53,773 bases of DNA from positions 1 through 53,773 of the IMG/VR virus record IMGVR_UViG_3300020596_000028; one strand, given 5' to 3'. The notes under the pieces were generated by a model. It did no database searches. It was not told the origin of the DNA and saw only the letters and a list, made by a program, of their open reading frames with translations. Each line of letters starts with the position of its first letter. Position 1 is the stretch's first letter. Source of the stretch: a virus. Positions 24,527 to 41,433 of the stretch are shown piece after piece. Both the position numbers and the translations under genes were made by a program.

Positions 24527-27500
24527 TTAAGCCCATCGTTGGAGCCAGTATTTAAACTGTGCATTGAATCCCGTCGAAGTGCTCGAATAAGTAACCACCA
24601 CATTCCCACCTGAGATCGATGCATCAAACGTGATGCCTAAATCTATCAATTGATCCGCCTTAAAGAAGGCTACCGAACAGTTCACATTCACGCCGTCGTT
24701 CACGAGATTCATCACCCCTTGTTCACGCTTCCCATCTCGCACTAAGGAGAAGTGAATGATGATATGAGGGTACTGAGTTGCGTTTAAAACTAAGAGTGAA
24801 ACATCGGTTGAGTTGTCGATCAGCACAAAGGCGCTAGAAAGTCCCTTGAATTCAAGACCATTCAACGTCAAAACTTTTGAAACTGAATCCCAAGTGAACG
24901 AAGAATCTGTAGATAAAAGATCACTGGAATTAAATTGAATTTCGCCGTTCGATCCAGCTGCCTGAAGTGATCCACTCGATCCGGTTGAGTAGCTGGGGAT
25001 TCCGCCAGGACCTCCTGCTGCATCACTCCATCGAGAAACGAAATACTTCATCGTTCCTGAAGTCCCTGTGGACTCAGATTCGTACTCAAGAACTAAGTCA
25101 TCTCCGTCTAAGTACGCATCGAAAGTAACTTGAATGTCCGTGATCACTGCACCGGCACGAACTAAAGTCACATCTGATCCGTTAGTTGAGATCAGGAGTT
25201 GCATGATTTCTTTCGCAGTACCTCGCAGTACAGAAAGATTGACAATCATGTTTTCACTGCCTGAAGAAGTCACTCGGAACACTTCGCCGGTTGAGTTGTC
25301 CGTGATGTCGCAGGTTTTTAGGGAACTCATTTCCCAGTAATCGCCTACGTTAAAGTATCTCACCGTATCGTTGATTTTAAATTCAGTTCCATCAAACACG
25401 GCAAGCTGGCCTGCGAATGCAATTCCTTTTTCTATGCGAACCGAATCCCCAATCCCGGGATCGGTTCCGTCTGGATAGTCAGCGACCTCAGTCCAGATAA
25501 TACTTGAGCCTACGCCACTAGATTCATAGATGCGGTTATTGAACGCAAATAAAACTCGGTCTTCGTTCGCCACTGCAACGCCATCAAACGTCGCAGCTGA
25601 ACCTGTCGGAATCACGGTTGCAAAGGGATCGTAAAAGGTGACTTGAATCGTGCCACCGTCGCCGCCGCCTTCACCAATTCGAGCTGCCTTATTATTTCTG
25701 ACTAACGTGTTGTCAAAAAAGATCAGTGAATCGCCGATACGAGTTGCAATTCGAAACGCATTCACCGTGCTAGGAACGAGTGAAGCCACGACTGGAATTA
25801 AGTTCACGTTGGCTTGCTGATTGAGTAAAACGTAAATACTATCGCCATCGGCAACTGGACCGATGGGAGAATTTGCAGCCGTTACCGTATTCACGATGCC
25901 GGTGTCGTTGAAACGAATCTTGATGTCCGTCGTGAACGAAAGACTTGTAGCTTGCCAGAACACTTTTTTATCGTCCACAGTGGCAACCGTGATGCGTCCA
26001 TCAGCAATTAAATAATTGATGTACTGCTGAACGTTCGCAACCGGAGAGCCTGAAAGGTTCGTATCGGCATTTAAATCATCCAGTGAAAGAATGCCGCCCA
26101 CTTCAGAGTTGCCTCTTAAGTACGCACCACTCAAGGCCACCAAACGATCCAGGAGAAGCTTGCCTGATCCTTCAAAAAAGTTATCTGCATCTGTCAACTC
26201 TTCAACGTTCAGTCCGTAGTGAAGAGCGCCGATGCCTGAATTTAAATAGCGCCGAGAGGTTGGGCAGCTTTGAGGTTCAGTCGAGAGTCCGACAATGGAC
26301 ACCGTGACTAAATCCGTCACCGCACTCACCGCAACTAACGCATCGTATAAGTCTTGAGCCGTGCTGAGACCGGATTGGAAACCCACTTTGATATGCCGTC
26401 CGGTAACAGTAACGATTTCTGATCCCGGAGCTCCGACTGAATCCTGGCCGCCTGTGAGAAACGTTTGGGCATACGGAGCACTTTGAGGAGCTGAACCTGT
26501 GCCGGTGATCGTGGTGTTAATTAAAGCCGCTGCTCCCACGTGAGCATCTAAAGCCGCTTTCACTTGAGTGGCAGTTGAGACTCCGCCTTCTAGCGTTACG
26601 CTAATGGCATTTCCTACAACGCTCACCACTTCGTTTCCAGCGTCGCCGATAGCTTCAGCTCCACCAGACAAGGTCACAGGCCCTGCTGGAGCCGTCTGGG
26701 TGCCTGTGCCGGCATCTAACGAGTAGGCATTGATGAGAGCTGAAGCTCCAACGTGCGCATTGATGGCAGTCTTAATTTGGTTGGCCGTTGTGACGCCGCT
26801 TTGTATCTGAACGCTGATCGCTGTGCCGATCACACTCACCACAGGAGTTGAGGTCGGAGCGCCGGTCGTGAACGCCACCGTGATGCCGTTTCCAGCAATC
26901 CCAATCGTATCGGCAATGAACCCTAAGTCTTGAAGTGTCGCTGAAGCGTATACGCCTGGAGTCCAATCCAGGTATTGCAAACTAATTAAGTTGCCTGCTA
27001 CGCCAGCCGTATCCGCTTGGAACGTGAGGTTTTGAATCAGGGATGAAGCTTTAATAGGAACAGCCGTGTCTTCGTACTGAACCGAAATTGTGTTGCCGTC
27101 TTCTTCAGTCAGCACGCTCACAAACTCGAGCTCTTGAACGGTGAGCCGAGCTAGACGAGCAGTTGAAGTGAACCGAAAATTATGATCTCCTGCGACCGTT
27201 CCCGCAACGCCTGCTCCGAAGTTTTTCTGCGGCTGTTCGTCGTAAGAGTCAATGTTCGTTTGATTAACATCCGTGCCTTGAGCGACTTCAAATTCAAACG
27301 TATCACCGATCTCAAAAGCCGTGGGGCCTTGATTGAGGGTGATAAATATTTTTTGGTCTTCGTCTATGTACTGTTGACCGACAATCGCAACCCCAATCGG
27401 TCCATCTAAAGCTCCGATGACTTGGAAGGTTGTAAAGGGTGCAACTGAGACACAGATCACCGTATAGAGTTGATTGATCGTGAAGTGGGTGAGTCGATTG

Positions 27501-27586
27501 ACCGTGAGAGTTCCATCGCCAACCGCTCCACTGAGAAGCACGGGAGCACTTAAGACGTATGGATCTTTAAAAACAGATTGGCTCAT
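24527..27586 (-). CDS. Large tail protein with tandem copies of the dispersed beta module (1019 aa)
   Basis: Residues about 145-450 consist of tandem copies of a unit with consensus I-Q-x-L-x-F-x-A-D, G-x-x-GN-x-I-x-V, V-x-G-x-x-I-x-V-x-x-x-x-G-V-x-T-A, then I-K-x-A-x-x-A-H-V-G-A-A-L and a final L-x-GG. The same unit appears singly in four other virion proteins. The C-terminal 400 residues hold further small strand-rich domains, including two related to the fibre gene downstream (ITDIQVTFDAYLDGDDLVLE and IDLGITFDASISGGNVVVTY). It probably forms tail-tip or fibre structure. Confidence 0.75.
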   Translation of the reverse strand: MSQSVFKDPYVLSAPVLLSGAVGDGTLTVNRLTHFTINQLYTVICVSVAPFTTFQVIGALDGPIGVAIVGQQYIDEDQKIFITLNQGPTAFEIGDTFEFEVAQGTDVNQTNIDSYDEQPQKNFGAGVAGTVAGDHNFRFTSTARLARLTVQELEFVSVLTEEDGNTISVQYEDTAVPIKASSLIQNLTFQADTAGVAGNLISLQYLDWTPGVYASATLQDLGFIADTIGIAGNGITVAFTTGAPTSTPVVSVIGTAISVQIQSGVTTANQIKTAINAHVGASALINAYSLDAGTGTQTAPAGPVTLSGGAEAIGDAGNEVVSVVGNAISVTLEGGVSTATQVKAALDAHVGAAALINTTITGTGSAPQSAPYAQTFLTGGQDSVGAPGSEIVTVTGRHIKVGFQSGLSTAQDLYDALVAVSAVTDLVTVSIVGLSTEPQSCPTSRRYLNSGIGALHYGLNVEELTDADNFFEGSGKLLLDRLVALSGAYLRGNSEVGGILSLDDLNADTNLSGSPVANVQQYINYLIADGRITVATVDDKKVFWQATSLSFTTDIKIRFNDTGIVNTVTAANSPIGPVADGDSIYVLLNQQANVNLIPVVASLVPSTVNAFRIATRIGDSLIFFDNTLVRNNKAARIGEGGGDGGTIQVTFYDPFATVIPTGSAATFDGVAVANEDRVLFAFNNRIYESSGVGSSIIWTEVADYPDGTDPGIGDSVRIEKGIAFAGQLAVFDGTEFKINDTVRYFNVGDYWEMSSLKTCDITDNSTGEVFRVTSSGSENMIVNLSVLRGTAKEIMQLLISTNGSDVTLVRAGAVITDIQVTFDAYLDGDDLVLEYESESTGTSGTMKYFVSRWSDAAGGPGGIPSYSTGSSGSLQAAGSNGEIQFNSSDLLSTDSSFTWDSVSKVLTLNGLEFKGLSSAFVLIDNSTDVSLLVLNATQYPHIIIHFSLVRDGKREQGVMNLVNDGVNVNCSVAFFKADQLIDLGITFDASISGGNVVVTYSSTSTGFNAQFKYWLQRWA

Positions 27587-27624
27587 AGTTTAGTTCTCTC
27601 AGCTCTCTATGTGTTTTTACTTCG

Positions 27625-28440
27625 TTAGAACATCTCTGTGATGCTTAAGCTCATAGTGACGTAACGATTGAGGGTGAACTGTTCATCTGGAACGTCATCG
27701 AACTGACCCCAGAGACTACAAAATGATGGATCATAACGGTCAATAATTACTAAGAACGGTCTCGAAGATCCCACATGATCAAACATCTCTCGAAGTGCCA
27801 CGAAGTTTTCAACTCCATCCGCTTCAGCCACAGACGTTCTTAACTTCTGGAACTTCGCTTTCAGGGTTCTCACTTTTACTTTTTCAGTCGCAACTCGAAA
27901 GAAGCCTTCCGTCTTCACCAGCTCAGCCATGTCTTTATTGGCGATCACAAAGTCATCAGTGATGTCTTCGTTGGCAGTTAAGGTGACAGCTCGGCCTCCT
28001 ACTATTCTACCAATCTGAACGTAACCACACGGATTAGCTGTGTCTAAAATTCTCAATCGATAATGCGAATACGTGCTTCCAAACGTTTGCGTAAGAACCA
28101 TGTTTCCCTTCGACCAAGGAATCGTGAGACTCACCGGAGGAGCTAGCCAGTTGTCTGAAATATTTGCTTGAATTTTCACGACCGCAGTCGGTGAAAAATT
28201 GTGTCCTAAGATCGCAAACGTATCAATGTTTGAAGCTTGATCGGCTTCAATCACAATGTCCTGAGAAGCTAAAACGTTTGCACTTCTCCATACATGCCGA
28301 ATGGATTCAGTGGTGAGGTTGGATTTATCAAAGTCTCCGTCAGCAGTTGAAGTGACTGATAAAATCTTAGAGCCAGGCATAAGGTAATCACGATTGCCAA
28401 GATCGAAGTAATGGAGAAAACTAATTCCTTCAGCACTCAT
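27625..28440 (-). CDS. Minor tail protein, possible distal tail component (271 aa)
   Basis: The gene directly follows the tape measure gene, the usual place of distal tail or tail-to-tip proteins. The middle of the sequence (SNIDTFAILGHNFSPTAVVK, then HYRLRILDTANPCGYVQIG) looks like a galactose-binding or F5/8-like beta sandwich. The end is RYVTMSLSITEMF. It overlaps the tape measure gene by 4 bases. Confidence 0.7.
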   Translation of the reverse strand: MSAEGISFLHYFDLGNRDYLMPGSKILSVTSTADGDFDKSNLTTESIRHVWRSANVLASQDIVIEADQASNIDTFAILGHNFSPTAVVKIQANISDNWLAPPVSLTIPWSKGNMVLTQTFGSTYSHYRLRILDTANPCGYVQIGRIVGGRAVTLTANEDITDDFVIANKDMAELVKTEGFFRVATEKVKVRTLKAKFQKLRTSVAEADGVENFVALREMFDHVGSSRPFLVIIDRYDPSFCSLWGQFDDVPDEQFTLNRYVTMSLSITEMF

Positions 28441-31400
28441 CCGTTCACCACGCCTCTCTGATTCACAACTGCTTCACCGCGTTCACTGGCTTCACGAATT
28501 GAATTAATCACGAGATCTTGAAGGTCACGCTTGGCACTTTCGCTCATTTCATTTCCAACGTTGAACGTGTTGCTGAAGTTTTGTTCAGCCATCCCGCCGC
28601 CTTGATTAATTTTCTTAGCCGCGTTTCGTAAATCTTTATTTGCTTCAGGTTGAAGAACTGCTTCTCCCCCGTTCAAAATAAATGATCGACCCGACATGCT
28701 TTGTGGCACTTCGTCTAAGCCTTCATGGGCTTGACCGCCAAGCTTCTGGTTTCTGATGTTGTTTACTTGCATCATCCCTGCGGCAGCAATCGCAGCAGCG
28801 GCAGCCGTAGCGAGAGCAGGACCGACGATTGGGATGCTCGACAACGCGGCAAAGGCTCCCGTAGCAGCCATGAAAGTATTCACGGAAGCTTGAGCAATCG
28901 CTGCCCCTTTTCCGATATTAAACATGGTTTCATTTTTAGATTGCATGAGAGAAGCAGCAGCCGTTAAGCCTTGGTTCATCGCCTGATACTGGGACGACTG
29001 TTGAATGCCGACCAACATCCCCATGAACTGTCCATGCTTCTCTTGTTGAAGCCGGATATTCGCAAGCGTTTCACCCCAAGAGTCCCGCAGCTTCTGTTGA
29101 CGAGTCACCTCGGCTTGAAGCTGAGTCTCACGAATCTGATTCATGTTAGCTTGATGATTTTGTTCCGCTTGCTCAATTGCAATCTTTCGTTCGCCTTCAG
29201 TGAGATCCTGATTCATTCGGATCTCAGCTTGGCTCGCTTCAAATTCCATTTGGCTTGCAGCTAACAATTCACGCGTCGCCATTTCATCGTTCATCAGGAG
29301 CTGAGCTTTTTCTTGATGAATCGCTAACTCTTCAGCGTTCCTAGCTTGCAGTTCTTGAAGACGAGAAGCGGACATCGCTCGCTCATAATCCTGGCGATTC
29401 ATTTCTCCCGTTTGCATTGCAAGCGTGAGTTGCTGTTGACGGGCTTGTTCTTGAGCAACTTTAACATCAGCTCCGCCTGAAGCTTCTGATGCTCCACCTA
29501 AACCTTGAGTCATCTGAGCTCTGGCTTGAGCGAGTGCGATTTGTTTTTCAGTTTCAGAGCTCACCGCAAGTCGCATCTGAGCATCGAGATGTTCTTTATA
29601 AGAAGCCATCTCAAGATCGCGTGCAGCAAGACGCGCTTGAGTCATTACTTCAACACCGTGACGGTCAATGTTTTGTTCTTCGATCATGCGCTGAGTAGCC
29701 ATCTCGACATGATGACTTCTCACTTCTTCAGCGAGAGCAATGCGTTTCGTTTTGATCTCATCAGCGACAGTGAACGTTTTATTTCGCTCACGAGAGATCG
29801 CAAGATCAACTTCTTTCATGCGAGCTTCACGTACTTCCATTTCGGATTTAATTTTTAAACCCTTCAATGCAAGTTGAGCTTTCGTTTCTTCTTCTTTCGC
29901 TTTTTCTAGAAGTTGTTTTTGAGCGTCATCCAAAGGAGCAATCTGAGTTGTGAGCTTGATGATGACTTCTTTTGAACGAGACTGAAGATCTTTAAGTGAG
30001 CCTTCAAATTGTTTTTTATTCTCTTCCCAGTCCATCAAAGCAAGTTGAGGAGAGACATCTTTCATTTTATCAATTGCAGATTTCGCAGCTTCTGAAGCCT
30101 TAATGAAGCCTGTTTCAAGCTTAATCATTGCTTGATTGCTAGCTGAAGCTTGAGATTCTAAACCTTTCAACGCATCGTTTTGTTCGCCTACAGCAACCGC
30201 TGTCTCTTCAGCTCTACGTGCAACTTCAACTTGAGCTTTTCCATTTGCCCAAAGTTGGTCAGAAAATCCTTCCATGCTCTGACGAATTCCTGCCACCGAT
30301 TTCGCCATATCGGAATCGACGAGAGAAACGATCGCTTCAATTCCTTTGAGAAGAAGTCTGATTTGAAAAGTGACGACATCAAATGCAGCTGCTAAACCTT
30401 GTTTCGCAAAACCAGCGCACTTATCGAAGTTGTCAATCAAGTACCCAATGCCAAGCGTGAGTCCAGCAACGGCAGCAATCGCAATGCCGACAGGCGATAA
30501 AGCCATTGTACTATTGAGAGCGATCTGAGCAATTTTCCATGCAACCGTTGCAACCCGTGCAGCGTTGGTGACGGCGATGTATCCACCGACTACTCCGACC
30601 GCGATGCCTAATGCCATGCCATAGTTTTTTAAACTATCAGAATTTTCATTTAACCACTGAGCTCCACTTGCGATCGATTCAGCCATGCTCGTGAACATGA
30701 CCGCTGATTTAGAAAGAGCAGAAATGACGGCAGGATTTTTCGTAATTAAAAATCCAATTTGCTTGAGCACGTCTCCCCAAGCTTCTTTTGATTTCTTTAA
30801 AGCGCCTTCATAAGTCTGAGAAGAGTTAGCAGCAAAGTCCCTGTACTTAGCCGCGATCAAATCAATCGCAGCCCCGCTTCTTAACTGTTCTTGAGTGAGT
30901 CCTTTTAGGGCCGTAACCTGAACGCCTAATTTACCAGTCGTTCCAGTCATCGTAATCGCGAGCTGTTTCATGGCAGCATTCGCATCGATGTTCAGAGCAG
31001 CGCCTAAGTTGACGGCAGCTTCAGTTGCTTTCGCAGCTTGTTCGGCACTCATTCCTAAGTTCATGCCGTAAGAAGCGAGGTCTTTTACGGCATCATCTGA
31101 GATCCCGATTTGCGCTTGCATCGCGCCTGAGAGTTTTTGGATCGCTTGATAAGCCTTCTCCGTGTAGTTCCCAGTCTGAACCATGGAGGCAGCAAGCTTG
31201 CGGTCTGAGGCTTCAGCTCCCGAAGCCGCATCGATCGTGGCACTGATGGCAGCGTTGACGCGACCAAACACAGCACCCATCACTTCACCAGCGCCTTTGA
31301 GAGCTAAGAAGGCAGTTGAAGCAGCAGTAACGGATTGGCCAAGACCCGTTTCACCTAAAGCGGCAGCGACCTTTTTTATGGCCGAACTGATATTGTCTTC

Positions 31401-31442
31401 CGCGGTGAGTTTGAGTTTTAACTCTCGATCATTATTACTCAC
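28437..31442 (-). CDS. Tape measure protein (1001 aa)
   Basis: The protein starts LKLKLTAEDNISSAIKKVAA, a common tape measure N terminus. It has an Ala- and Gly-rich helical region with two or three hydrophobic segments (about 265-340 and about 890). Long Gln/Glu/Arg-rich coiled coil occupies roughly residues 430-860. Length, context after the frameshifted chaperones and coiled-coil content all fit. By the usual rule of about 1.5 angstroms per residue, the tail would be near 150 nm. It sets tail length and is ejected with DNA. Confidence 0.95.
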   Translation of the reverse strand: MSNNDRELKLKLTAEDNISSAIKKVAAALGETGLGQSVTAASTAFLALKGAGEVMGAVFGRVNAAISATIDAASGAEASDRKLAASMVQTGNYTEKAYQAIQKLSGAMQAQIGISDDAVKDLASYGMNLGMSAEQAAKATEAAVNLGAALNIDANAAMKQLAITMTGTTGKLGVQVTALKGLTQEQLRSGAAIDLIAAKYRDFAANSSQTYEGALKKSKEAWGDVLKQIGFLITKNPAVISALSKSAVMFTSMAESIASGAQWLNENSDSLKNYGMALGIAVGVVGGYIAVTNAARVATVAWKIAQIALNSTMALSPVGIAIAAVAGLTLGIGYLIDNFDKCAGFAKQGLAAAFDVVTFQIRLLLKGIEAIVSLVDSDMAKSVAGIRQSMEGFSDQLWANGKAQVEVARRAEETAVAVGEQNDALKGLESQASASNQAMIKLETGFIKASEAAKSAIDKMKDVSPQLALMDWEENKKQFEGSLKDLQSRSKEVIIKLTTQIAPLDDAQKQLLEKAKEEETKAQLALKGLKIKSEMEVREARMKEVDLAISRERNKTFTVADEIKTKRIALAEEVRSHHVEMATQRMIEEQNIDRHGVEVMTQARLAARDLEMASYKEHLDAQMRLAVSSETEKQIALAQARAQMTQGLGGASEASGGADVKVAQEQARQQQLTLAMQTGEMNRQDYERAMSASRLQELQARNAEELAIHQEKAQLLMNDEMATRELLAASQMEFEASQAEIRMNQDLTEGERKIAIEQAEQNHQANMNQIRETQLQAEVTRQQKLRDSWGETLANIRLQQEKHGQFMGMLVGIQQSSQYQAMNQGLTAAASLMQSKNETMFNIGKGAAIAQASVNTFMAATGAFAALSSIPIVGPALATAAAAAIAAAGMMQVNNIRNQKLGGQAHEGLDEVPQSMSGRSFILNGGEAVLQPEANKDLRNAAKKINQGGGMAEQNFSNTFNVGNEMSESAKRDLQDLVINSIREASERGEAVVNQRGVVNG

Positions 31443-31822
31443 TTCGTTCTCCCACCCGCGTTTCTTTTATTTTGAATCTCGGCGAACTGTTTCTTTTCAA
31501 CGTCTTGTGCCTTCTTGGCCTCCCTAGAAATATACTCCGAAGAGAGGTCATCAAGATATTTGAACAGCTCAATAGTGTAAGCAGTTTGGTCAACCATACT
31601 GCCCGGATGAGGATAGATTTTTGAGTCCCGGCAATCAAAATAAAGATCGACCAAGAACTCGTCCTGCCGGCTCTGCATGTAAAGTCCCTTAGGACATTCG
31701 TCATACAGATGACCGGCAAGCAGGTTCTTAGCAGGCTTAAACAGATTGCAGCAGTTTCGAAGGCGTTGCAGACCTCGGTCGCACTTGGTGCAATTAAACG
31801 ATGGACCCTTCTTGCGATCCAT
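31439..31822 (-). CDS. T-domain of the tail assembly chaperone, made as a G-T frameshift fusion
   Basis: The 127-residue frame starts in the -1 frame relative to the upstream chaperone. It is open back to the slippery site at 31849, so a frameshifted ribosome would make a fusion of about 283 residues. The domain has a cysteine cluster (CTKCDRGLQRLRNCC), then IYPHPGSMVDQTAYTIELFK, typical of gpT-like domains that bind the tape measure. An ATG exists at 31822 but has only a poor ribosome site. It overlaps the tape measure gene by 4 bases. Confidence 0.8.
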   Translation of the reverse strand: MDRKKGPSFNCTKCDRGLQRLRNCCNLFKPAKNLLAGHLYDECPKGLYMQSRQDEFLVDLYFDCRDSKIYPHPGSMVDQTAYTIELFKYLDDLSSEYISREAKKAQDVEKKQFAEIQNKRNAGGRTK

Positions 31823-32393: not shown

Positions 32394-33953
32394 TTACCGG
32401 ATGGTCAGCGTGATCTCGGTATCGAGTGCGTTCTTGCTTGTCGCCATACAAGTTCCTTCAAGAGCCAAACTCACGTAGCTATCGCCAGGCTGTTCAATCT
32501 CAGGAATATTGAACTCCACTTTAGGCATTTTCCACTCAAAGGTTCTTCCAACGCCGCTCGTATAGGACGGAGCTGGAATGTCTTGAGGCTCAAGAGTGAG
32601 GGTGACGTCTTCAGCAATGAACTGTTTGCTTCTCATGAAATGAACGAAGTTATCTTTATTCAAGAGCACTTCACATTTTAAAGTCACAGTTCGGCGCTTG
32701 TCTGGAAGGTAACCCTTGTTCTTTGAAGTGCCGTACAAGAAGTCCTTCTTCGTGAAGTTGTTGGCAATCGCAACTTCAGCACTAATGGCTTCTGCTTGTC
32801 CACCGCTTGCAAAGCTCACTGAACCTTTCAGTCCAAGGAGAGCGTTGCTGGAATCAATCGGATCATAACTCACCGGAGCATGACCGATCACAATGTCGTT
32901 CACGTCAGCAGCTGCAAATGCAACTGAGACCCGAACGATATCCGCGTTGACTCCGGTGCCGATTGCGACGACTTTTTTAGCCGAGCTCTTCACCGTGTTG
33001 CCATCGTCTTTATCGATCACATCGATATAGCCGTCAGCTTCAAACATCTGGCCTTGGCCCGATCCAACTTTAGCTTCCGTATCCAGTAATCCGCCAGCTA
33101 AGTTCACTGCTGCTGCCACAACCTGAGCATTACCGCCCACGCCTGACACGGCAACACTGACCAAAGCAGAAGCGCCTACGTGAGCGTCAACTGCGGTTTT
33201 GATTTGAGAAGCAGTGGTGACTGCCGTTTCAATCTGAACGGAGATCGCAGTTCCTGTGAGGGAAACGACTTCAGCACCGGCCGTTGCTCCACCTGTGTAG
33301 GTAATCGTGATCAAGTTCCCGTTTGAACCTACAGCGTCAGCTGTATAGGTCAGGTCTTGAACGATCTTACTTGCCGCTACAGATGCACTTGTGAGGGCTT
33401 GAGCAAGAACGGATTGTCCAGCAAAGAAGGCGTCTTGTCCGAAGCCTTCCATCGAGACCATCGACTTGCCATCACCTGGCAATTGGAAGGTCATGGAATC
33501 CGCTACGCAACCAATGGCAAGCTTCGTGAAGTGCGAGGTTTCTTCCAGCATCCGGAAGCTGTTGTTATTTAAGCTCGTGAGCTTATAAACAATCTCAGCC
33601 GGATCAGTGAGATCCACGCTTCCGAACACGCTTAAGAACATCGCGTGCAAAGGGGGTAGCGTTGGGTTTCCAGATCCGTCTGGAGTGCCTGGAATCACAT
33701 AGCCTTCGTAACTGATTTCAACTTCTTTTTTCCCTGAGTGACGAGTCACCACAGATCGGCCAGATCGTGCTTCACTGTCAGACCGTGGAATATCGAACTT
33801 GATATTTCCGTTAATATGCTCAACCGCGTCAGATCCAATCGGAAGTAATCCGCTGGTTGCGTCTTCGCCGTATCCGCCTGATTCGATCGAAAGCCAAAAC
33901 TTCTGATCCAGGCCTAGGGCTTCATGACTTCTGCTTAAAAGATTTCTGCTCAT
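32394..33953 (-). CDS. Major tail tube protein carrying an inserted beta module (519 aa)
   Basis: Position before the G/T chaperones, with its own terminator, fits a highly expressed tail tube protein. The N-terminal 190 residues (KFWLSIESGGYGEDATSGLL) and C-terminal 220 residues (KNKGYLPDKRRTVTLKCEVL, then YVSLALEGTC) look like tube domain strands. Residues about 192-289 hold one copy of the dispersed module (IVQDLTYTADAVGSNGN, TYTGGATAGAEVVSLTG, IKTAVDAHVGASALVSVAVS). At 519 residues it is longer than most tube proteins, explained by the insert and possible extra domains. Confidence 0.75.
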   Translation of the reverse strand: MSRNLLSRSHEALGLDQKFWLSIESGGYGEDATSGLLPIGSDAVEHINGNIKFDIPRSDSEARSGRSVVTRHSGKKEVEISYEGYVIPGTPDGSGNPTLPPLHAMFLSVFGSVDLTDPAEIVYKLTSLNNNSFRMLEETSHFTKLAIGCVADSMTFQLPGDGKSMVSMEGFGQDAFFAGQSVLAQALTSASVAASKIVQDLTYTADAVGSNGNLITITYTGGATAGAEVVSLTGTAISVQIETAVTTASQIKTAVDAHVGASALVSVAVSGVGGNAQVVAAAVNLAGGLLDTEAKVGSGQGQMFEADGYIDVIDKDDGNTVKSSAKKVVAIGTGVNADIVRVSVAFAAADVNDIVIGHAPVSYDPIDSSNALLGLKGSVSFASGGQAEAISAEVAIANNFTKKDFLYGTSKNKGYLPDKRRTVTLKCEVLLNKDNFVHFMRSKQFIAEDVTLTLEPQDIPAPSYTSGVGRTFEWKMPKVEFNIPEIEQPGDSYVSLALEGTCMATSKNALDTEITLTIR

Positions 33954-33970: not shown

Positions 33971-34585
33971 TTAGGCTGCTGGGTTAGCAGATCCATTGAG
34001 AATGATTTTGTACTTCTTCGTTCTCAAGCGTTTAATTTCAATAATGTCTGCTTTGTCGAAAGTGGAAGTATTGGATCCACCTAAAAGAGCTGTGCTCACT
34101 TGGGTAGTCAATACACTCACGCCTGAACCCGCAACGGAAACCAAAGCTGAAGATGGAGCTGAAGCAATGATTGCAGCTTTCACTGTGTTCGCAGTGGAAG
34201 TAATTGCAATTCCGTCGTGAGCTAAGTTGACCGTAATTGCGTTTCCAACTACGCCGACTGAAAGAGGAGCAGAAACACCTGGATCAACATAAGTGATCGT
34301 GATTGAGTTTCCGCCAGTTCCTAGAGCGACTGCTGTATAAGTCAGCCCTTGAATCACCTTGCTAGCTGCGATCACGCCAGCTGCACTTGCGATGATGAGA
34401 CAACCCGTACTGAGAGTTTCATCAATGGTGAATGAGGAAAGCTCGTTACCTCGGTAAAGAGTTTTTCCTTTGAGAATTTGAAGTCGACTTGCTTTAACAG
34501 CTGAGGCGAGACGGATCTTTTCTAGGAGCTTCGTCTTTTTAGCAGCAGTCAAGCCAGTCCCATATTTTGATTTGAGTAATGGCAT
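33971..34585 (-). CDS. Small virion protein with inserted beta module (204 aa)
   Basis: About half the protein (residues 72-171) is a copy of the dispersed module (VIQGLTYTAVALGTGGNS, VGVVGNAITVNLAHDG, SSALVSVAGSGV). The flanks are a basic helix (AAKKTKLLEKIRLASAVKAS) and a short C-terminal strand pair (ADIIEIKRLRTKKYKIIL). It lies between the tail tube and tail terminator genes, so a head-tail joining or tube-associated role is plausible. The ribosome site is GGAAGGA. Confidence 0.65.
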   Translation of the reverse strand: MPLLKSKYGTGLTAAKKTKLLEKIRLASAVKASRLQILKGKTLYRGNELSSFTIDETLSTGCLIIASAAGVIAASKVIQGLTYTAVALGTGGNSITITYVDPGVSAPLSVGVVGNAITVNLAHDGIAITSTANTVKAAIIASAPSSALVSVAGSGVSVLTTQVSTALLGGSNTSTFDKADIIEIKRLRTKKYKIILNGSANPAA

Positions 34586-34653
34586 CGTATGTTCCTTCCT
34601 AACCGGAATAAGGTTAATCTGGGTGGTTAAGGTCTACGATGTATCTATACGTC

Positions 34654-35160
34654 TTACTTGGCGTTGCGTGCGTTCCGCGTGTACTCAATATCAATGTCCA
34701 TGCTGAAAAGCCTCACTCCACTATTGTCCAGCTCACTGAAGAGTTGATTATCGGTCGGAATGGAGAGCACTTCCATTTTGTTAATCTGACCAAACAGCGT
34801 GTTGTTATCGTCTAAGCACTGTTCCACATCCGCTAGGAACTCCTCAAACTCAATGAATTCCATCTCGCGGCAAGTCCCAAAGATCTCTAATCGCCACACG
34901 TATTCGCGCACAGTGCCGGCATGGCGTTTAATATTATTGACCGAATCAATAATGTACATCACCGGAGTTTCAGCTTTCGCTTTATCCCGCCAGCCCTTCA
35001 CGTTGAAGGTCACGTCGGCCATGTTCTGAGTATAACCTCGGTCCTTGGTGACGGTCTTTAAGAGCATCTGAAGGGCAACCAGGATACGAGCTCGCTTAGA
35101 TTTTAAGGGCTCAATGATGGCCTGAATTTCTTGAACTTCAATGGTCGTTAACTGTGCCAT
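34654..35160 (-). CDS. Tail terminator-like protein (168 aa)
   Basis: The position between the gp10-like connector and the tail tube gene is that of tail terminator or tail completion proteins (lambda gpU/gpZ, HK97 gp10 neighbours). The alpha/beta pattern EYVWRLEIFGTCREMEFIEF followed by an acidic helix (FLADVEQCLDD) and a final strand (RLFSMDIDIEYTR) fits the gpU-like fold. The call rests mainly on synteny. Confidence 0.6.
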   Translation of the reverse strand: MAQLTTIEVQEIQAIIEPLKSKRARILVALQMLLKTVTKDRGYTQNMADVTFNVKGWRDKAKAETPVMYIIDSVNNIKRHAGTVREYVWRLEIFGTCREMEFIEFEEFLADVEQCLDDNNTLFGQINKMEVLSIPTDNQLFSELDNSGVRLFSMDIDIEYTRNARNAK

Positions 35161-35166
35161 AACGGA

Positions 35167-35754
35167 TTACTCCAGTCCAAATGTTTCATCTAAAAACAGT
35201 CCAAACTTCTCAGCTATTTCTTCCCGCTTGGCTTCTAGAGCAGGACGAATATAAGGCCGTGCTGGAACCTTGACGCTTTTTTTCATCAGGAACAGAGGCA
35301 CCATTTCGCCTCCTTCGGCTCGCATCGCTAGGATGAGATTACCGGCTCGACTCTTAATAAAGAAGGATCGGCCAGCAAAGTCCATCGGTTTCGCTCTAGC
35401 GATCCCGTCCGGGCCTTTCACTTCGTCTAAAGGAATGGCTAGGTACTTAGCGTTCTTCGGAGTGATCTCGCCGCCGAACTCATGGATCGAAGCATACGGC
35501 ACGCCTTCAGGTCCGACCTCCCCTTTGATCACGCCATTTTCTTCACTCACTCTAGAGCCTTGAGGAATGGAGTTTAGAAGCATTCCTGAACCCACGCGGA
35601 AGTTCTTTTGAACGTTTGCCATCATCTCTGCTTGCAGTGCCGTGATCGCACGCCACATGATTTTCTTCAGTCCACGGCGATAGTCTAAGCCTTCTTTTTC
35701 TAAAAGCTCAGCTAACCTTTTCGCCTCTTCACTGCCGTGGATATTTAATTTCAT
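35167..35754 (-). CDS. HK97 gp10-like / virion morphogenesis protein (195 aa)
   Basis: The protein has the features of this tail-completion family: VQKNFRVGSGMLLNSIP, then VPYASIHEFGGEI, and near the C terminus KKSVKVPARPYIRPALE. The family joins the tail to the head connector. It overlaps the upstream connector gene by 4 bases. Confidence 0.85.
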   Translation of the reverse strand: MKLNIHGSEEAKRLAELLEKEGLDYRRGLKKIMWRAITALQAEMMANVQKNFRVGSGMLLNSIPQGSRVSEENGVIKGEVGPEGVPYASIHEFGGEITPKNAKYLAIPLDEVKGPDGIARAKPMDFAGRSFFIKSRAGNLILAMRAEGGEMVPLFLMKKSVKVPARPYIRPALEAKREEIAEKFGLFLDETFGLE

Positions 35755-36773
35755 ATCTGGTTCTGGTTCCGTTGTGGAACTGGACGAGTGCCAAGAGACA
35801 CGTCTTGATAAGGCTCAAGCATTTCGTAGATCTGAGAAGGGATTCCATCGACTAGCTTCGTATAGCTCTCACCTTTGATTCCCTTAGAGCCTACGCCTAG
35901 GTCACGGTTCTCGCGTTGCATGTACCAGAACTCCATCAACTGCTTGCCTGCGAGAGCAATATCTTGAGGCAAGTCATCGACCGTTTCACCCCAGCCTGCT
36001 TTGTACTTGAGCTTGATCGCACCCAAAATGGAACCACTAAAGATCGTGCCGAGAACAAACTTCTCGTTATCATCCCGTAGTACAATGTCGTTGCCAACAA
36101 TTCTAAGCTCGGTATCGCTCGTTTTCTGTCTTCGATCTGAGCCTCCGCGTTTGAAATAATTTGCGGTCGGCATGATTGACGTATCCCCAAACCCACGATT
36201 GTAATCGATTCGGATTTCAACGATCTCAGTCACAGGCCATTGATGAGGCTTGATGACGTTTGAGTTACTGCCGTCATGCTCTTCAGTGAACGTGCGATTC
36301 AAAACTGGCGTCGATAGGATGCTCTCCACTCGATCACTAGCGGCTTGTCTGAGCTCATCGATAATGTCTTTTACGCCTTGATCATAGCGCGTGTCGTTCG
36401 TTCCAGCGGATAGTGAACCGACTGCTGCAATCACCTGAGCATCGCCTGAGTTACCCACCAAGCTCACGTCAACCAAGTCTTGAGTGCTGGCTAAAACTTT
36501 CGTCATCACTTGGAGAGCAGTACTCACCGTGTCTTCAATTTGAATGGTGATCAAGTTTCCCACCTGAGTGACGACTTCAGCCCCAGCCGTAGCGCCTCCG
36601 GTGTACTCAATTTGAATCAAAGTGCTGTCAGGTCCAGGTAGTTTTGAAGTGTATTTTAAGTCCTGGATAGTTAAGAAACCTTTAGTTCCGCCTAACAAAC
36701 CCACAACTTCTTTTTTCACCTTCAGCCAAAATGCAGCCTTCTCCAGCGTGATGAAACAATTATCTTTGACCAT
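35751..36773 (-). CDS. Head-tail connector (HK97 gp6-like) interrupted by the beta module (340 aa)
   Basis: The first 25 residues (CFITLEKAAFWLKVKKEV) match the first helix of gp6-like connectors. The expected next helix appears only at about residue 131 (YDQGVKDIIDELRQAASDRV) and continues with the usual ESILSTPVLNRTFTEEHDG. Residues about 30-125 between them are one copy of the dispersed module (IQDLKYTSKLPGPDS, EYTGGATAGAEVV). The C-terminal half has extra strands and helices. Gp6 forms a ring under the portal. Confidence 0.8.
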   Translation of the reverse strand: MVKDNCFITLEKAAFWLKVKKEVVGLLGGTKGFLTIQDLKYTSKLPGPDSTLIQIEYTGGATAGAEVVTQVGNLITIQIEDTVSTALQVMTKVLASTQDLVDVSLVGNSGDAQVIAAVGSLSAGTNDTRYDQGVKDIIDELRQAASDRVESILSTPVLNRTFTEEHDGSNSNVIKPHQWPVTEIVEIRIDYNRGFGDTSIMPTANYFKRGGSDRRQKTSDTELRIVGNDIVLRDDNEKFVLGTIFSGSILGAIKLKYKAGWGETVDDLPQDIALAGKQLMEFWYMQRENRDLGVGSKGIKGESYTKLVDGIPSQIYEMLEPYQDVSLGTRPVPQRNQNQI

Positions 36774-37572
36774 ACGTCACCCATTTTTCTTCGCCGTGAG
36801 CAATGCCAGCGGCTATTTTTTTAGGATCAAAATCTAACGTGCTCATTAGGATGCGTCCTGGAGCGAAAACTTTTAGGTTAATTTTCTTCTTACCCTTTTC
36901 ATTATTATACCGTGTGCACTTGCGAACATCGTTCACGAACACCTCGTGCTCCATCACATCAAGGGCTCGCATCCCCGCTGAAAGGAAATGAGGCCAAGAA
37001 GTCTTCCACTTGTTAAGCGGGTTTTGAACCATCGGGTTGCACAGGATGATAATGATTTCATCGGCTCCGTCTTTGATCGCTTGAGCGAGCGGTGCCTGTT
37101 CTCTCACGCCACCGTCGACATACTTCCCGAGCGGCATCTCCATAAAAAAAGGAATGCACGCTGAGGCTTCCGTCATCAGAGCAAATGCATCGTGACTCAT
37201 CTGACGGCGATAATAATAATTCAACGAGCCATCGACGAGGTTAGTGACGACGACACAAGCGTCTCCTACATACTCAAGTGCTTCCACTTTGAGTCCGGCT
37301 TGAAGCTTCTCACGTAAAGGCTTCATCGAGTACACGCTGTCAGACCAAAGCATATTCAACTTTAAAGAAAGAATGTCTGAACGGCCTTGAATGGAGCGCC
37401 ACATTTTTTCAGTGCCTTCCATTCCCATGAACGAAAGTCCAAAGGCGTTCAAAGCTCCGACTGAAGTTCCATACACGCAATCAGGCATCCACTCTTTCAG
37501 GAGGTGCTTCATCACACCGACCTGGAAACAACCTTTCGCTCCACCACCGCTCAGGACCAATGCTCGTTTCAT
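36760..37572 (-). CDS. Patatin-like phospholipase (270 aa)
   Basis: The catalytic pattern is complete: oxyanion loop GGGAKG (9-14), nucleophile elbow GTSVG with S37, and DGG with D153. The family hydrolyses acyl esters of phospholipids through a Ser-Asp dyad. It has no signal peptide. It lies within the head-tail connector genes and overlaps the connector by 14 bases, so it may be a virion protein or act on host membranes at entry or release. Patatin enzymes are uncommon within phage structural operons. Confidence 0.92.
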   Translation of the reverse strand: MKRALVLSGGGAKGCFQVGVMKHLLKEWMPDCVYGTSVGALNAFGLSFMGMEGTEKMWRSIQGRSDILSLKLNMLWSDSVYSMKPLREKLQAGLKVEALEYVGDACVVVTNLVDGSLNYYYRRQMSHDAFALMTEASACIPFFMEMPLGKYVDGGVREQAPLAQAIKDGADEIIIILCNPMVQNPLNKWKTSWPHFLSAGMRALDVMEHEVFVNDVRKCTRYNNEKGKKKINLKVFAPGRILMSTLDFDPKKIAAGIAHGEEKWVTYGQR

Positions 37573-37578
37573 CGTTCG

Positions 37579-38223
37579 TTATCCGATCTCGTAGGCAAAG
37601 AGGTTAAACTGTACATGTGCTGCTTCAGTTGCGTTGGCATGTGAGTGGTATTGAATGCGCATGAAGAGTCCTGCCATTATCGGATTACTCACATCTACAT
37701 CAGCAATCTCATTGCCGATGCCTTTATAAATCTGTAAATGAGGAACGTACTCGACAAGAAAAGTTGGGTCTTCAGGAGTTCCTCCGTAGCCAAGGACATT
37801 ATTTTTATCGATCAAAAACACTTTTACAAAATCTCCAGGACAAGAATTGATCGAAAAAATATTACCACCTCGAAGAGCAAGTTGCTGATCAAATTCAAAA
37901 TCATAATCAGTAATCGCATTCATCGCAGCTACAAAATAACCGCCTCGCATTCGAAGTGAATAATCGGAAGCCGAGTTTCCTACAGTCTGAAGGACTCTCT
38001 TTGGGATGTCGTTTTTTAGAAAATCAATTTGATTATTGAGTCCATTGAGATCATTGTTCCCGTCGTTGACTACGAGTTCACCGGCTGAAATCGCAAGTAA
38101 GATCGAGTCATCACTCGCCCATCTTGCTTCATCCGTACTTGGAATTGTGTAATAAGAACCAGATTCAATGTCTTGACCTAGATAGTTTGCGACTTCAATC
38201 AGTGTATTTTTAACTCGTTTCAT
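37579..38223 (-). CDS. Tandem virion protein family, member 4 (214 aa)
   Basis: The N terminus (VKNTLIEVANYLGQDIESGS, YYTIPSTDEARW, VNDGNNDLNGLNNQIDFLKN) parallels those of the next two upstream genes: K-N-T, Y-x-I, a W/L-x-S-D segment and V-NDG followed by a helix. The C-terminal beta region carries ISINSCPGDFVKVFLIDKN. It is probably a small fibre, head decoration or collar component. Confidence 0.65.
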   Translation of the reverse strand: MKRVKNTLIEVANYLGQDIESGSYYTIPSTDEARWASDDSILLAISAGELVVNDGNNDLNGLNNQIDFLKNDIPKRVLQTVGNSASDYSLRMRGGYFVAAMNAITDYDFEFDQQLALRGGNIFSINSCPGDFVKVFLIDKNNVLGYGGTPEDPTFLVEYVPHLQIYKGIGNEIADVDVSNPIMAGLFMRIQYHSHANATEAAHVQFNLFAYEIG

Positions 38224-38942
38224 TAGCCCTCCACCTGAGCGTTTCCAGTTCCTAAAAGGTAAATTCTAAATGCGATTCCGACTTGTGTCGGCAACGTGAG
38301 AATATTTGTTCCTTTGTCTCTCATAAACACGCGGAGTGTATCGCCGACCTCAAAGTTTAAAGGAAGAAGATAGTTTGTCTTATTTGCTTTTCTCTTATTA
38401 CGAATCGCCCATGTGAATATTTTCATCGCAGGTCCGTTTCCGTTTTTGTAACATTCAACGTCCATATCGATATCAATGTTTGTACTCATGGTGATTGCAA
38501 GTGCTCGACAACGAACAGGGATCACCATCGGAATTAAGTTTGAAGAGAGAGCATTCGATCCGTTTCCAAGCCATTTATTTGACGTGACTCCATCTGAAAT
38601 GAAATCAATTACTCCCATTTTTCCAACTGTTGAGTTTAAAATAATCTCTTCTATGAATGAATCCATGTTTCTAGAAACAACGTCAGGGTTAGAAGACTTG
38701 TACCAAACTTGGTCAGCAAGAGTATCGCATTGAAGAAACTTTAAACCGTCTGCGACGTTCGTAATGTCATCAGTGCCGTCATTCATCACAGCAATCTGAT
38801 TATTGACGTGAGCAGATACGATCGGATTATTCGACCAGATCTGGTATTCATTCGGAGGAATAACATAATACTCTCCAGGCATGACCAGAGTTCCGCACCA
38901 AGTCTGATTCACTAGAGTTGCATTCTTAATTTTTTTAATCAT
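38223..38942 (-). CDS. Tandem virion protein family, member 3 (239 aa)
   Basis: The N terminus has KNATLVNQTWCGTLVMPGE, YYVIPPNEYQIWSNNP and VMNDGTDDITNVADGLKFLQ. The C-terminal beta domain has KWLGNGSNALSSNLIPMVIP, CRALAITMSTNIDIDMDVE and CYKNGNG, matching the C-terminal domain of the next two upstream genes. It shares one base with its downstream paralogue. It was probably formed by tandem duplication. Confidence 0.65.
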   Translation of the reverse strand: MIKKIKNATLVNQTWCGTLVMPGEYYVIPPNEYQIWSNNPIVSAHVNNQIAVMNDGTDDITNVADGLKFLQCDTLADQVWYKSSNPDVVSRNMDSFIEEIILNSTVGKMGVIDFISDGVTSNKWLGNGSNALSSNLIPMVIPVRCRALAITMSTNIDIDMDVECYKNGNGPAMKIFTWAIRNKRKANKTNYLLPLNFEVGDTLRVFMRDKGTNILTLPTQVGIAFRIYLLGTGNAQVEG

Positions 38943-39664
38943 GTGACAGATCCTCCTACTCCTGCGGTTTCAGAGGTCACGTAGAAAAACGCTGTGATCA
39001 TAGACTTACTAGGATTAATCAAAGAAGTGCGGCGACCAAAGATTCCAAACTGATCCCCTGGAGAAAACTGAAGAGCAGGAGTCGTATTGACTAAATTCAT
39101 ATCAAATAAGTAGGCGTGTTTCTTGAGTGACACAGGCCAGGTGTAAACTAAATTTCCAGATTCTTTTCCGTTCTTATAAAGTTCAACGTTGATTGAAGAA
39201 CTTGATGCGTCGTTCACAAATGTGAGACCAATAAGTTTAGCTGCAAACGGAAGAATGAGCGGAGCGACATCCATGGTGAGCGCGTTCTCATGCCGCCGCA
39301 TCCACTGATTAGAGAGTGAAGAGGTTCGCATGCTCTCCACCATGATAATTCGTCCTGACACCATGACTGAAACCGCTTCATTAATTGCGGATCGAATATC
39401 GTTGGAAAGAAAGTTGGTTCCCGTTTTTAAAAATCGCCCCTCACTCGCATCGAGCTTCAGGACTAAAGCTGCGTCAGCGGCTGAAAGATTGGTGGCTCCA
39501 TCATTCACTACGGCACTTAGACCTGTCAGATCCGTGAGAAATAAAGTGTCTGACAAGAGTCTCAGTCGATCGACTTCTTGAATGGCGTACTGAGAAGCGG
39601 CTTCAATTTGAATCCCCCCCCACACCTTAACTGATCCTGTCGTATTTTTTAAAATGAGTGACAT
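38939..39664 (-). CDS. Tandem virion protein family, member 2 (241 aa)
   Basis: Like its neighbours it has an N-terminal Y-x-I, L-S-D and VVNDGATNLSAADAALVLKL segment. The C-terminal beta domain contains QWMRRHENALTMDVAPLILP, LIGLTFVNDASSSSINVELY and KNGKESGN. It overlaps the downstream paralogue by 4 bases. Function as a decoration or fibre protein is inferred from position among head and connector genes. Confidence 0.65.
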   Translation of the reverse strand: MSLILKNTTGSVKVWGGIQIEAASQYAIQEVDRLRLLSDTLFLTDLTGLSAVVNDGATNLSAADAALVLKLDASEGRFLKTGTNFLSNDIRSAINEAVSVMVSGRIIMVESMRTSSLSNQWMRRHENALTMDVAPLILPFAAKLIGLTFVNDASSSSINVELYKNGKESGNLVYTWPVSLKKHAYLFDMNLVNTTPALQFSPGDQFGIFGRRTSLINPSKSMITAFFYVTSETAGVGGSVT

Positions 39665-39666
39665 GG

Positions 39667-40122
39667 TTAAACCGTCCTAATGCAGATTGCTAGTGTCGGT
39701 CGATTGATCGTTCCTGAAGTGACTTTAAGCGAAATCTCATCTAAATCAATATAAGCAATCGAAAGCCCTTTCACTCTCGCTTTGCGATTGCCAGAAAGAG
39801 AAATCGTTGTCGATTCAACCCCATTATTAAACAACGTGACTGTTCCAGTTGAGTTCGTCGAAGCACTCAGTGAAAGAGAAATGAGTTCTGAAGGCTCAGG
39901 AATAATGAGCGGGTTGAGGTTAGAAGGATTGTTTGTGAAGAATTCAAGCCATCTCCCCACCCCTGCCGATCCGTCAAACCCGCACATTACCGCACCTCGC
40001 GAAACTAGCTTCGCGAGTGCTAACGCTTCTTCAATTGCTGCTTGAACTTCAGTCGAGGTGAACCCGTTGGCCCGATCAGGCGGAGATTTAAACTCAATGC
40101 TGTCCGCGTTTAGTCTTCCCAT
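39667..40122 (-). CDS. Tandem virion protein family, member 1, C-terminal domain only (151 aa)
   Basis: This shorter protein lacks the N-terminal NDG region. It starts with a fibre-like GRLNADSIEFKSPPDRANGF followed by EVQAAIEEALALA. The C-terminal beta domain (RWLEFFTNNPSNLNPLIIPE, LISLSLSASTNSTGTVTLF, NNGVESTTISL) matches those of the next two downstream genes. It may be an ancestral or rearranged form. Confidence 0.6.
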   Translation of the reverse strand: MGRLNADSIEFKSPPDRANGFTSTEVQAAIEEALALAKLVSRGAVMCGFDGSAGVGRWLEFFTNNPSNLNPLIIPEPSELISLSLSASTNSTGTVTLFNNGVESTTISLSGNRKARVKGLSIAYIDLDEISLKVTSGTINRPTLAICIRTV

Positions 40123-40155
40123 GGATTCACCTCAACCCTAAGTTTCAAAAATCGA

Positions 40156-41433
40156 TTACATGTCTACGTTATCAGTTGCTTTTCTGTAATCGATATCGAG
40201 CTCTTCATCCTGCTGAGGAGCTTTATTCATTCGGTTGCGTTCGTTGGTTTTGATGTGGAAACTGACCCACTTGTATCCAGTCGAAGCAATGTTATTGAGG
40301 TACACTTGCTCAAGCTCAGCATAGTCTCCTGTGCCGTCATCGAGTCCACCTGTCAAAGCAGAAGGACCAAACGTTGCGACTACTCCTGATCCGTTTCCGC
40401 CGTATTTGGCTTGGACAATCCTTTGAGCTGTAGAATCAGAGTTAATAGCTCCAGCGATATCAGCAGCAGTAGCAAGACCACCATTGTTATTGACCTTTAC
40501 CAAATACCCGGCCGATGAACTTCCGGTGATGAGCACAGTGAGGCCTGCCCCGGTTTGAACTTGGATGTCGGTCTCATTGCCGAGTAGTCCTAAGATCATC
40601 GAAGTGAGAATCAACTGAGCATTGCCAGCTCCTTGAGTAAGGGAGGCACGAGTTCCTGCGGTACCGCGACGTTTTCTCACCCCATCAATCAACACCTTGC
40701 TCGAGTTCTGAACGAACAGCAATTGACTCATGAAAGCCAAGTGAGATCCGTTTGCAGCGGCAAGCTGTTCGCCTTCAACGGGACGATCAATCTCGTCAAT
40801 GCGAGACTCAGTTCGCTCCACCATTTGCTGAAGCGTGATGCTTGTGGCTTCTAGGAATGGATTAGTTGCGCTTGAGGTATCAATCAGAGCGTTGATGACT
40901 ACTGTGGAACGATTGTTCACAGCATCCGCATTCGGGTTCACGGACTCAATGACTTGAGCCGAAGACACAATGCCTTCATCAGCTAGAACGTCTACCGTAT
41001 CGCCTGCTCGAAAAGAGCGAACGTTAGCGACGTAGAAGGTCGTCTTTCCAGCCGAAGGCGTGTTCATCGCAGAAGTGATGATCGTTTCTTTTCGGGTGAA
41101 CTTGACGTTGCCCTTGAGTACTCGGCGATAGAGTCGGTCCATGGCAGATTGACCATCGTCAATTTGCTGGACTTGGATCATCGGAGTTCCGACAGCTCCA
41201 GTTGTATCTACGGCGCTTGAAAGCACTACAGCGACGTTGTCATCAATCGCAGAGATGGTCAGGTTGTCGGCCAAAACGGAAAGGATATTTCCGTTTGCAT
41301 CGACATCCACCACATCGACGATATCGCCGAATTCAAAGTAGCCAGTAAAGTCAACTGCCTGCCTGTCATCATTGATCGGGCTGGTACAGGTAACCCGCGC
41401 CTCGAATAAAGTCCTAATCAGATTGCCTTGCAT
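40156..41433 (-). CDS. Head-associated protein with beta module and APQQ tail (425 aa)
   Basis: Residues 1-190 are strand-rich (FGDIVDVVDVDANGNILSV, FRAGDTVDVLADEGIVSSAQ). A helix follows, then a basic VRKRRGTAGTR segment. Residues about 262-366 are a divergent copy of the dispersed module (LILTSMILGLLGNETDIQVQ, LATAADIAGAI, final LTGGLDDG). The C terminus RNRMNKAPQQDEELDIDYRK closely matches the C terminus of the next upstream gene. Position downstream of the capsid gene suggests a head decoration or fibre component. Confidence 0.6.
   Translation of the reverse strand: MQGNLIRTLFEARVTCTSPINDDRQAVDFTGYFEFGDIVDVVDVDANGNILSVLADNLTISAIDDNVAVVLSSAVDTTGAVGTPMIQVQQIDDGQSAMDRLYRRVLKGNVKFTRKETIITSAMNTPSAGKTTFYVANVRSFRAGDTVDVLADEGIVSSAQVIESVNPNADAVNNRSTVVINALIDTSSATNPFLEATSITLQQMVERTESRIDEIDRPVEGEQLAAANGSHLAFMSQLLFVQNSSKVLIDGVRKRRGTAGTRASLTQGAGNAQLILTSMILGLLGNETDIQVQTGAGLTVLITGSSSAGYLVKVNNNGGLATAADIAGAINSDSTAQRIVQAKYGGNGSGVVATFGPSALTGGLDDGTGDYAELEQVYLNNIASTGYKWVSFHIKTNERNRMNKAPQQDEELDIDYRKATDNVDM

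What the first reader, a model, noticed from the sequence alone, without database searches (positions are those of the whole stretch)
24527..41433. One beta-rich module is inserted into five different virion proteins
A unit of about 95-105 residues recurs in the proteins at 24527-27586 (tandem copies), 32394-33953, 33971-34585, 35751-36773 and 40156-41433. Its pattern is I-x-x-L-T/x-Y/F-x-A, G-x-x-GN-x-I-x-I, V-x-G-x-x-I-x-V, T-A-x-x-I-K-x-A, S/A-A-L-V/I and L-x-GG. In the gp6-like connector it separates the first helix from the rest of the fold, and in the tail tube protein it sits mid-chain, so it behaves like a surface-exposed insert. One phage decorating head-tail connector, tube and tail tip with the same domain suggests a shared ligand, such as host glycan or envelope attachment, or a mobile coding module. 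The copies diverge at DNA level, so the spread is old or selected for diversity.
Basis: partly seen in the sequence, partly recalled or inferred. Interest (0 to 1): 0.85.

Follow-up and report, generated by a model that had tools for sequence, protein, structure and literature searches.

The report
Self-nesting insert domain in phage proteins
One small protein domain, related to the outer domain of contractile phage-tail sheaths, has been dropped into at least five different proteins of this apparently non-contractile phage, and in one protein it sits inside itself three layers deep like Russian dolls, which makes the spread of a protein building block directly traceable.

Summary
A ~95-residue module occurs in all five proteins; leave-one-out E-values run from 3e-33 to 8e-8, against 0.019 or worse for shuffled and reversed controls. 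It is a true insert: homologues lacking it exist for the adaptor, the 204-aa protein and the tail tube, and an insert-free paralogue of the fifth protein lies next to it in the window. The copies in 24527-27586 are not tandem. They are nested (N1 N2 [N3C3] C2 C1), each layer opening at the same loop. Eight other phages share this three-level nest; a ninth relative has two levels.

Fold and profile searches identify the module: it is homologous to the outer beta-sandwich domain of contractile tail sheaths. Yet neither this phage nor seven relatives has a detectable sheath gene, and the tube is T5-pb6-like. Elsewhere the module sits in sheaths, minor tail proteins, fibres, internal virion proteins, adaptors and another tube. 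In one host gene it entered at two different sites.

A shared specific ligand is not supported: conserved residues look structural, and aromatic and charged residues are scarce. Best reading: an old, promiscuous, loop-compatible surface domain, kept as generic exterior decoration. The function remains inferred.

The parts
36402..36677 (-). module copy in D, inserted between the first helix and the rest of the head-tail adaptor
   Evidence: profile hit 1.2e-25; leave-one-out 4.5e-21; absent from the D homologues in L059, L061, L062, L076
35751..36773 (-). host protein D, 340 aa, gp6-like head-tail adaptor
   Evidence: phrog_442 head-tail adaptor 1.6e-14
34076..34366 (-). module copy in C, in the late beta-hairpin
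   Evidence: 8.9e-28; leave-one-out 2e-26; insert-free 99-112 aa homologues in L031, L066, L068, L062, L075
33971..34585 (-). host protein C, 204 aa, small protein encoded between tail terminator and tail tube genes
   Evidence: gene order and alignment
33090..33374 (-). module copy in B, between the two tube repeats
   Evidence: 1.1e-34; leave-one-out 3.4e-33; missing from the 423-425 aa homologues L061, L062
32394..33953 (-). host protein B, 519 aa, T5-pb6-like duplicated tail tube protein
   Evidence: VIA-align Z 21.7, 298 residues aligned to T5 tube 9iny; model itself low confidence
27062..27151 (-). N1: N-terminal half of the outermost nested module in A
   Evidence: profile 1-30
26966..27049 (-). 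N2: N-terminal half of the middle nested module in A
   Evidence: profile 1-28
26660..26947 (-). N3C3: complete innermost module in A
   Evidence: 1.2e-28; sheath fold match Z 8.5
26447..26647 (-). C2: C-terminal half of the middle nested module in A
   Evidence: profile 30-95, 4e-21; N2+C2 align together to sheath structures
26234..26434 (-). C1: C-terminal half of the outermost nested module in A
   Evidence: profile 30-95, 6.7e-12
24527..27586 (-). host protein A, 1019 aa virion protein encoded downstream of the tape measure gene
   Evidence: ORF and gene order; no family match of its own
40345..40623 (-). module copy in E, divergent subtype
   Evidence: leave-one-out 8.2e-8
40156..41433 (-). 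host protein E, 425 aa
   Evidence: ORF
41472..41924 (-). insert-free paralogue of the part of E around the module, 150 aa
   Evidence: aligns continuously to E only when the module is cut out: 2e-8 over 121 columns against separate fragments

Best explanation
The unit is an autonomously folding beta-sandwich domain homologous to the outer surface domain of contractile-phage tail sheaths (the kind Pfam calls Phage_sheath_domII). Its two ends probably lie close together, so it can be dropped into an exposed loop of another protein without breaking that protein's fold. Across phage evolution it has been inserted repeatedly, by rare illegitimate or homology-assisted recombination, into many unrelated virion proteins. 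One frequent landing site is its own loop between strands 2 and 3, which produced nested copies two to about four levels deep. It is kept under purifying selection, usually weaker than on its host protein. Most likely it decorates the outside of the particle, as in sheaths: a generic surface, spacer or weak-contact element rather than a specific receptor-binding or enzymatic domain. Shown here: homology, insertion, insert-free homologues, nesting, sheath relationship, selection. Inferred: exposure on the assembled particle, the recombination route, and the functional benefit.
For: Homology among the five copies. Insert-free homologues of B, C and D with intact flanks and an insert-free neighbour of E. 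The same module in sheaths phrog_23 and phrog_205, minor tail phrog_290, internal virion phrog_511/3287, tail fibre, tail fibre J, adaptor phrog_442/40, major tail phrog_1407 and virion protein phrog_1731 of other phages. An unrelated tube (L055) where a Pfam Phage_tail_2 match begins right after the module; its module matches annotated tail sheath genes of cultured phages while its tube part matches major tail proteins. Nesting. AlphaFold of the nested region has mean pLDDT 88.5. Only tail sheaths match it clearly (Z 6.6-8.5, next row 2.2), including alignments of about 90 residues spread over 57..264, which is N2 plus C2 with the inner copy skipped. Sheath domain homology. No sheath gene in the window or seven relatives. 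In the module tree, D and A rows do not cluster by host protein and B rows do only partly. Two insertion sites in host C, L069 against the others. Purifying selection: module omega at most 0.58, above host omega in 9 of 12 pairs. In assembled sheaths the outer domain does not contact other subunits (PMC6088184).
Against: No experiment shows exposure or function. The AlphaFold model of the whole tube is poor (mean pLDDT 55.6), so the position of the insert on the tube was not modelled. Coordinates of the nested model could not be inspected, and the outermost layer N1+C1 is not covered by a separate structural match. Presence and absence cannot be polarised into gain or loss without a root, except that two different sites in C imply two events. 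The module tree rests on 95 columns and is weakly resolved. No module tested reaches Pfam's curated cut-off for the sheath domain.
Confidence: 0.75

Rival explanations
1. The module is a carbohydrate- or envelope-binding domain with one shared ligand, spread over neck, tube and tail end to tether the phage to its host, as carbohydrate-binding modules do in lactococcal 936 phages.
For: Same phage-wide placement on neck and tail as the binding modules shown to bind host cells in 936 phages (PMC6669499). Extra sheath domains have been proposed to aid adhesion (PMC9230969).
Against: No binding-module family matches in Pfam. Conserved positions are Gly, Asn and core aliphatics. Trp 0.1%, His 0.3%, Arg 0.6%, Lys 1.6% leave no usual aromatic or charged binding platform. 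Copies in one phage are nearly as different as copies of different phages.
Confidence: 0.2
2. The module is a cementing element: copies on neighbouring subunits contact each other or the host protein and stabilise the particle.
For: Some inserted beta-sandwich domains of tail proteins add ring contacts, for example YSD1 domain2 (PMC8718954), and domain II has been proposed to stabilise the sheath of phage 812 (cited in PMC9230969).
Against: Close relatives manage without the insert in adaptor, small protein and tube together (L061, L062). In a related sheath the outer domain touches no neighbours (PMC6088184).
Confidence: 0.2
3. The module is an active intragenic mobile element, moved by a dedicated recombination mechanism.
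For: Many unrelated hosts, self-nesting at the same loop, two sites in one host gene, similar modules shared between non-homologous hosts in distant phages.
Against: No near-identical DNA copies in different hosts; best local identities between non-orthologous modules in the pairs seen about 70-78%. No recombinase or terminal signal was identified with it. The nest is conserved across relatives, so it is old.
Confidence: 0.08
4. The segments are unrelated, integral beta-rich parts of each host fold that look alike by composition.
For: The module is rich in Ala, Gly, Thr and Val, which can inflate scores.
Against: Shuffled and reversed controls score 0.019 or worse. Insert-free homologues exist. 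Nested halves match a fixed sheath fold.
Confidence: 0.02

Closest known systems
Phage_sheath_domII (PF17481), outer beta-sandwich domain of contractile tail sheaths
   Same: Same fold (Z 6.6-8.5 to sheath chains 9gb1, 3hxl, 3lml, phage 812). Profile-profile probability 99.2 to the equivalent domain of cultured-phage sheaths. Occupies the domain position in sheaths such as L013, L044, L047. Also an insert in its host.
   Different: Here it sits in non-sheath proteins of a phage without a detectable sheath gene, it is nested in itself, and it scores below the curated Pfam cut-off.
Phage Ig-like domains (Big_1, Big_2), promiscuous accessory domains of virion proteins
   Same: Promiscuous beta-sandwich add-ons on tubes and other virion proteins, exchanged between phages (reviewed in PMC8718954 and PMC9230969).
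   Different: In the tubes cited (lambda gpV, T5 pb6, YSD1) the Ig-like domain is C-terminal, while here it is an internal loop insert. No convincing Ig family match.
Carbohydrate-binding modules of lactococcal 936 siphophages (PMC6669499)
   Same: One class of module placed on neck, tube and distal tail of the same phage.
   Different: Those bind host cells in assays. Here there is no binding family, aromatic platform or experiment.
Recursive insertions in cyanobacterial RNA polymerase SI3 (HABAS/hybrid motif; PMC13114784)
   Same: Nested insertion of related domains, up to six levels.
   Different: Different fold and protein; there in one cellular enzyme, here in phage virion proteins, with two- and three-level versions of one orthologue.

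Membership tests
PF17481 Phage_sheath_domII | score above the curated family cut-off (31.4 bits) | tested here: not met
   16 of 60 modules match at E < 0.1, best 0.0018; Valp1 sheath 20.6 bits
PF17481 Phage_sheath_domII | fold of the sheath outer beta-sandwich domain | tested here: met
   Z 6.6-8.5 to nine sheath entries, next row 2.2
PF17481 Phage_sheath_domII | detectable sequence homology to that domain in sheaths of cultured phages | tested here: met
   module profile hits in sheaths of Valp1, ZRG1, H905 at 1e-14 to 2e-22; hhalign 99.2 without sheath rows
PF17481 Phage_sheath_domII | lies within a tail sheath protein | tested here: not met
   window hosts are adaptor, tube and others; no PF04984 or phrog_23 in the record
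Phage Ig-like domain | match to an Ig-like domain family | tested here: not met
   only one of 60 modules, Ig-CFAP74_2 at 0.025
Phage Ig-like domain | Ig fold | tested here: inconclusive
   no Ig structure listed, which is not proof of absence
Carbohydrate-binding module | match to a binding-module family | tested here: not met
   none in Pfam or NCBIfam
Carbohydrate-binding module | binds host glycans | not testable with these tools
   needs a binding assay
Mobile genetic element | recent near-identical copies in different genes | tested here: not met
   best local nucleotide identity about 70-78% between non-orthologous modules in the pairs seen; output partly cut
T5 pb6-type tail tube (host protein B) | duplicated tube fold | tested here: met
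   Z 21.7, 298 aligned residues spanning 11..519 of the model, though model confidence is low
phrog_442 head-tail adaptor (host protein D) | profile match | tested here: met
   1.6e-14, residues 65-327

The most novel reading that the evidence does not exclude
The module is a protein-level mobile unit that propagates through phage structural genes, including repeatedly into its own copies, so that nesting depth records the order of its insertions.
Probability: 0.25. Interest if true: 0.8.

Novelty: new variant of a known kind. Interest (0 to 1): 0.66.

Why it matters
It gives a clear, testable case of how phage structural proteins gain domains: one identifiable module, many unrelated hosts, natural versions with and without it, and a nested series with two and three levels in orthologues. 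It ties an accessory domain of contractile sheaths to apparently non-contractile phages and connects several proteins that the Pfam, PHROGs and NCBIfam searches here left without a name for this domain. The loops it occupies are natural candidates for tolerated insertion sites in adaptor, tube and tail proteins.

Tried and rejected
tblastn of the B module and of protein D against cultured phages: no match. PDB sequence search with two module profiles: no credible match. NCBIfam: scattered weak hits only. Tandem-repeat reading of protein A: rejected, because the fragments are complementary halves in nested order. The full tube model was too poor to place the insert and was used only to identify the tube fold. 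Recent DNA copying: no near-identical modules in different hosts seen (output partly cut). Shared ligand site from conservation: none found. Gene-tree test of module against host: host classes are not clades, B clusters only partly, and resolution is low. Literature: no paper found naming PF17481 or describing this promiscuity; only open-licence papers were searched. A sample of 201 genomes from the phylum of L057 (an Armatimonadota record) had 6 with a module; their host proteins were not followed.
Full report
What was checked. I extracted the proteins, compared the segments, and built profiles. Direct comparisons link A, B, C and D. With each host's own row and its nearest orthologues left out, the profile still finds A at 5.7e-26, B at 3.4e-33, C at 2e-26, D at 4.5e-21 and E at 8.2e-8 (for E only its own row was left out), while 21 shuffled or reversed versions of the window proteins give 0.019 at best.

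Is it an insert? Two searches with the parts of D and B that lie outside the module brought in relatives. In presence/absence terms for D / C / B: the window, L012, L017, L022 and L069 carry all three; L031, L066 and L068 lack it in C; L059 lacks it in D; L061 and L062 lack it in all three; L076 lacks it in D. The flanks close up in the insert-free versions: B is 423-425 aa instead of 519, C 99-112 aa instead of 204, D 242-271 aa instead of 340 (lengths of open frames). For E the neighbouring gene 41472-41924 is an insert-free paralogue: it aligns over 121 columns at 2e-8 when the module is cut out, and as separate fragments when it is not.

What the hosts are. D matches a head-tail adaptor family (phrog_442). 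B has no family match by sequence, but its model matches the T5 tail tube at Z 21.7 over 298 residues spanning both ends of the protein, which fits a duplicated tube protein with the module between the repeats. The model is of low confidence, so I use it only for the fold. The window also holds portal, protease, major head protein, tape measure and terminase genes, a tail terminator match and a Neck1 match. No sheath gene was found in the window or in seven relatives, some of which are partial records. A and E remain unnamed.

The nest. In A the profile fragments fall as 1-30, 1-28, 1-95, 30-95, 30-95. Joining N2 with C2 gives 96.9 bits and N1 with C1 58.5 bits (the intact copy gives 89.6), so both joins read as complete modules. 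The same pattern stands in the orthologous proteins of G001, G002, G004, G005, G006, G007, G008 and G011; G010 shows the three N-halves before its contig ends; G012 (L076, L079) has only two levels, with both flanks conserved. Other nests differ in place or host: L027 and L042 open at other positions, L080 appears four levels deep, and the module in the L022 form of C is split by a different insert that L076 also carries.

Structure. AlphaFold of A residues 120-470, given 30 aligned sequences, reached mean pLDDT 88.5. Compared with solved structures, only tail sheaths stand out: Z 8.5 to phiCD508, 7.8 to 3hxl and 3lml, 7.6-7.8 to phage 812, 6.6 to an archaeal sheath, then 2.2 for the next, unrelated, entry. 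Some rows align the innermost copy (93..191), others about 90 residues spread over 57..264, which corresponds to N2 plus C2. That is structural support for two of the three layers. The matched sheath residues, about 94-203 in most rows, are the sheath's outer beta-sandwich domain.

Relation to sheaths by sequence. PF17481 matches 16 of 60 modules weakly (best 0.0018). The module profile finds the same domain in sheaths of Vibrio phage Valp1, Aliivibrio phage H905 and Pseudomonas phage ZRG1 at 1e-14 to 2e-22, and a profile without sheath rows aligns to them with probability 99.2. A tube protein from another phage, L055, makes the point in one gene: its module matches sheath genes and its remainder matches tail tube genes.

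Breadth. Other hosts include sheaths, minor tail protein, tail fibres, internal virion proteins, an Ig-domain protein, a baseplate-like protein, adaptor, tube and a virion structural protein. In host C the module of L069 lies after the first helix and those of the other phages in the late hairpin, so at least two insertions hit that gene. The module tree does not group D or A copies by host protein; B copies group partly, and mean identity is 48% for same host and different phage, 47% for same phage and different host, 43% for neither.

Selection and make-up. In 12 pairs of related genes the module's omega is at most 0.58 and exceeds the host's in 9; a few pairs have very few changes. The module has almost no Trp, His or Cys and little Arg or Lys, and conserved positions look structural. 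This speaks against a common specific binding site, not against weak generic contact.

Mechanism, with status. Shown: homology, insertion, dispensability in evolution, nesting, sheath relation, purifying selection. Inferred: ends close together in space, insertion by rare recombination, exposure outside the particle (from sheaths where the outer domain touches no neighbours, PMC6088184), and a decorative or weak-contact role. The recursive layout has a precedent in RNA polymerase (PMC13114784), and sheath proteins themselves have been called Russian dolls. I found no report of this module nested in itself or in non-sheath phage proteins, within the open-licence library searched.

Verdict. A real and unusual finding: a new variant of a known kind, with the functional claim still open.

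Noticed in passing
window 36760-37572: Patatin-like protein (GGGAKGCFQVGV and GTSVGALN motifs) encoded between the adaptor gene and other virion genes; a similar protein is in L066 at 1663-2505. No PHROG match.
   Followed up: no
L076:3214-4335 and L022:4341-5402: A second inserted domain of about 128 aa (TTAELVELINTG ... GEGDG motifs) shared by two homologues of host C (1.4e-40).
   Followed up: partly
window 41472-41924: Paralogue of the E domain without the module, directly beside E.
   Followed up: yes
window 45469-48294: 941-aa protein matching portal and head-morphogenesis families in one chain.
   Followed up: no
window 31435-31822: Two overlapping reading frames next to the tape measure gene start; a possible tail-chaperone frameshift site.
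   Followed up: no
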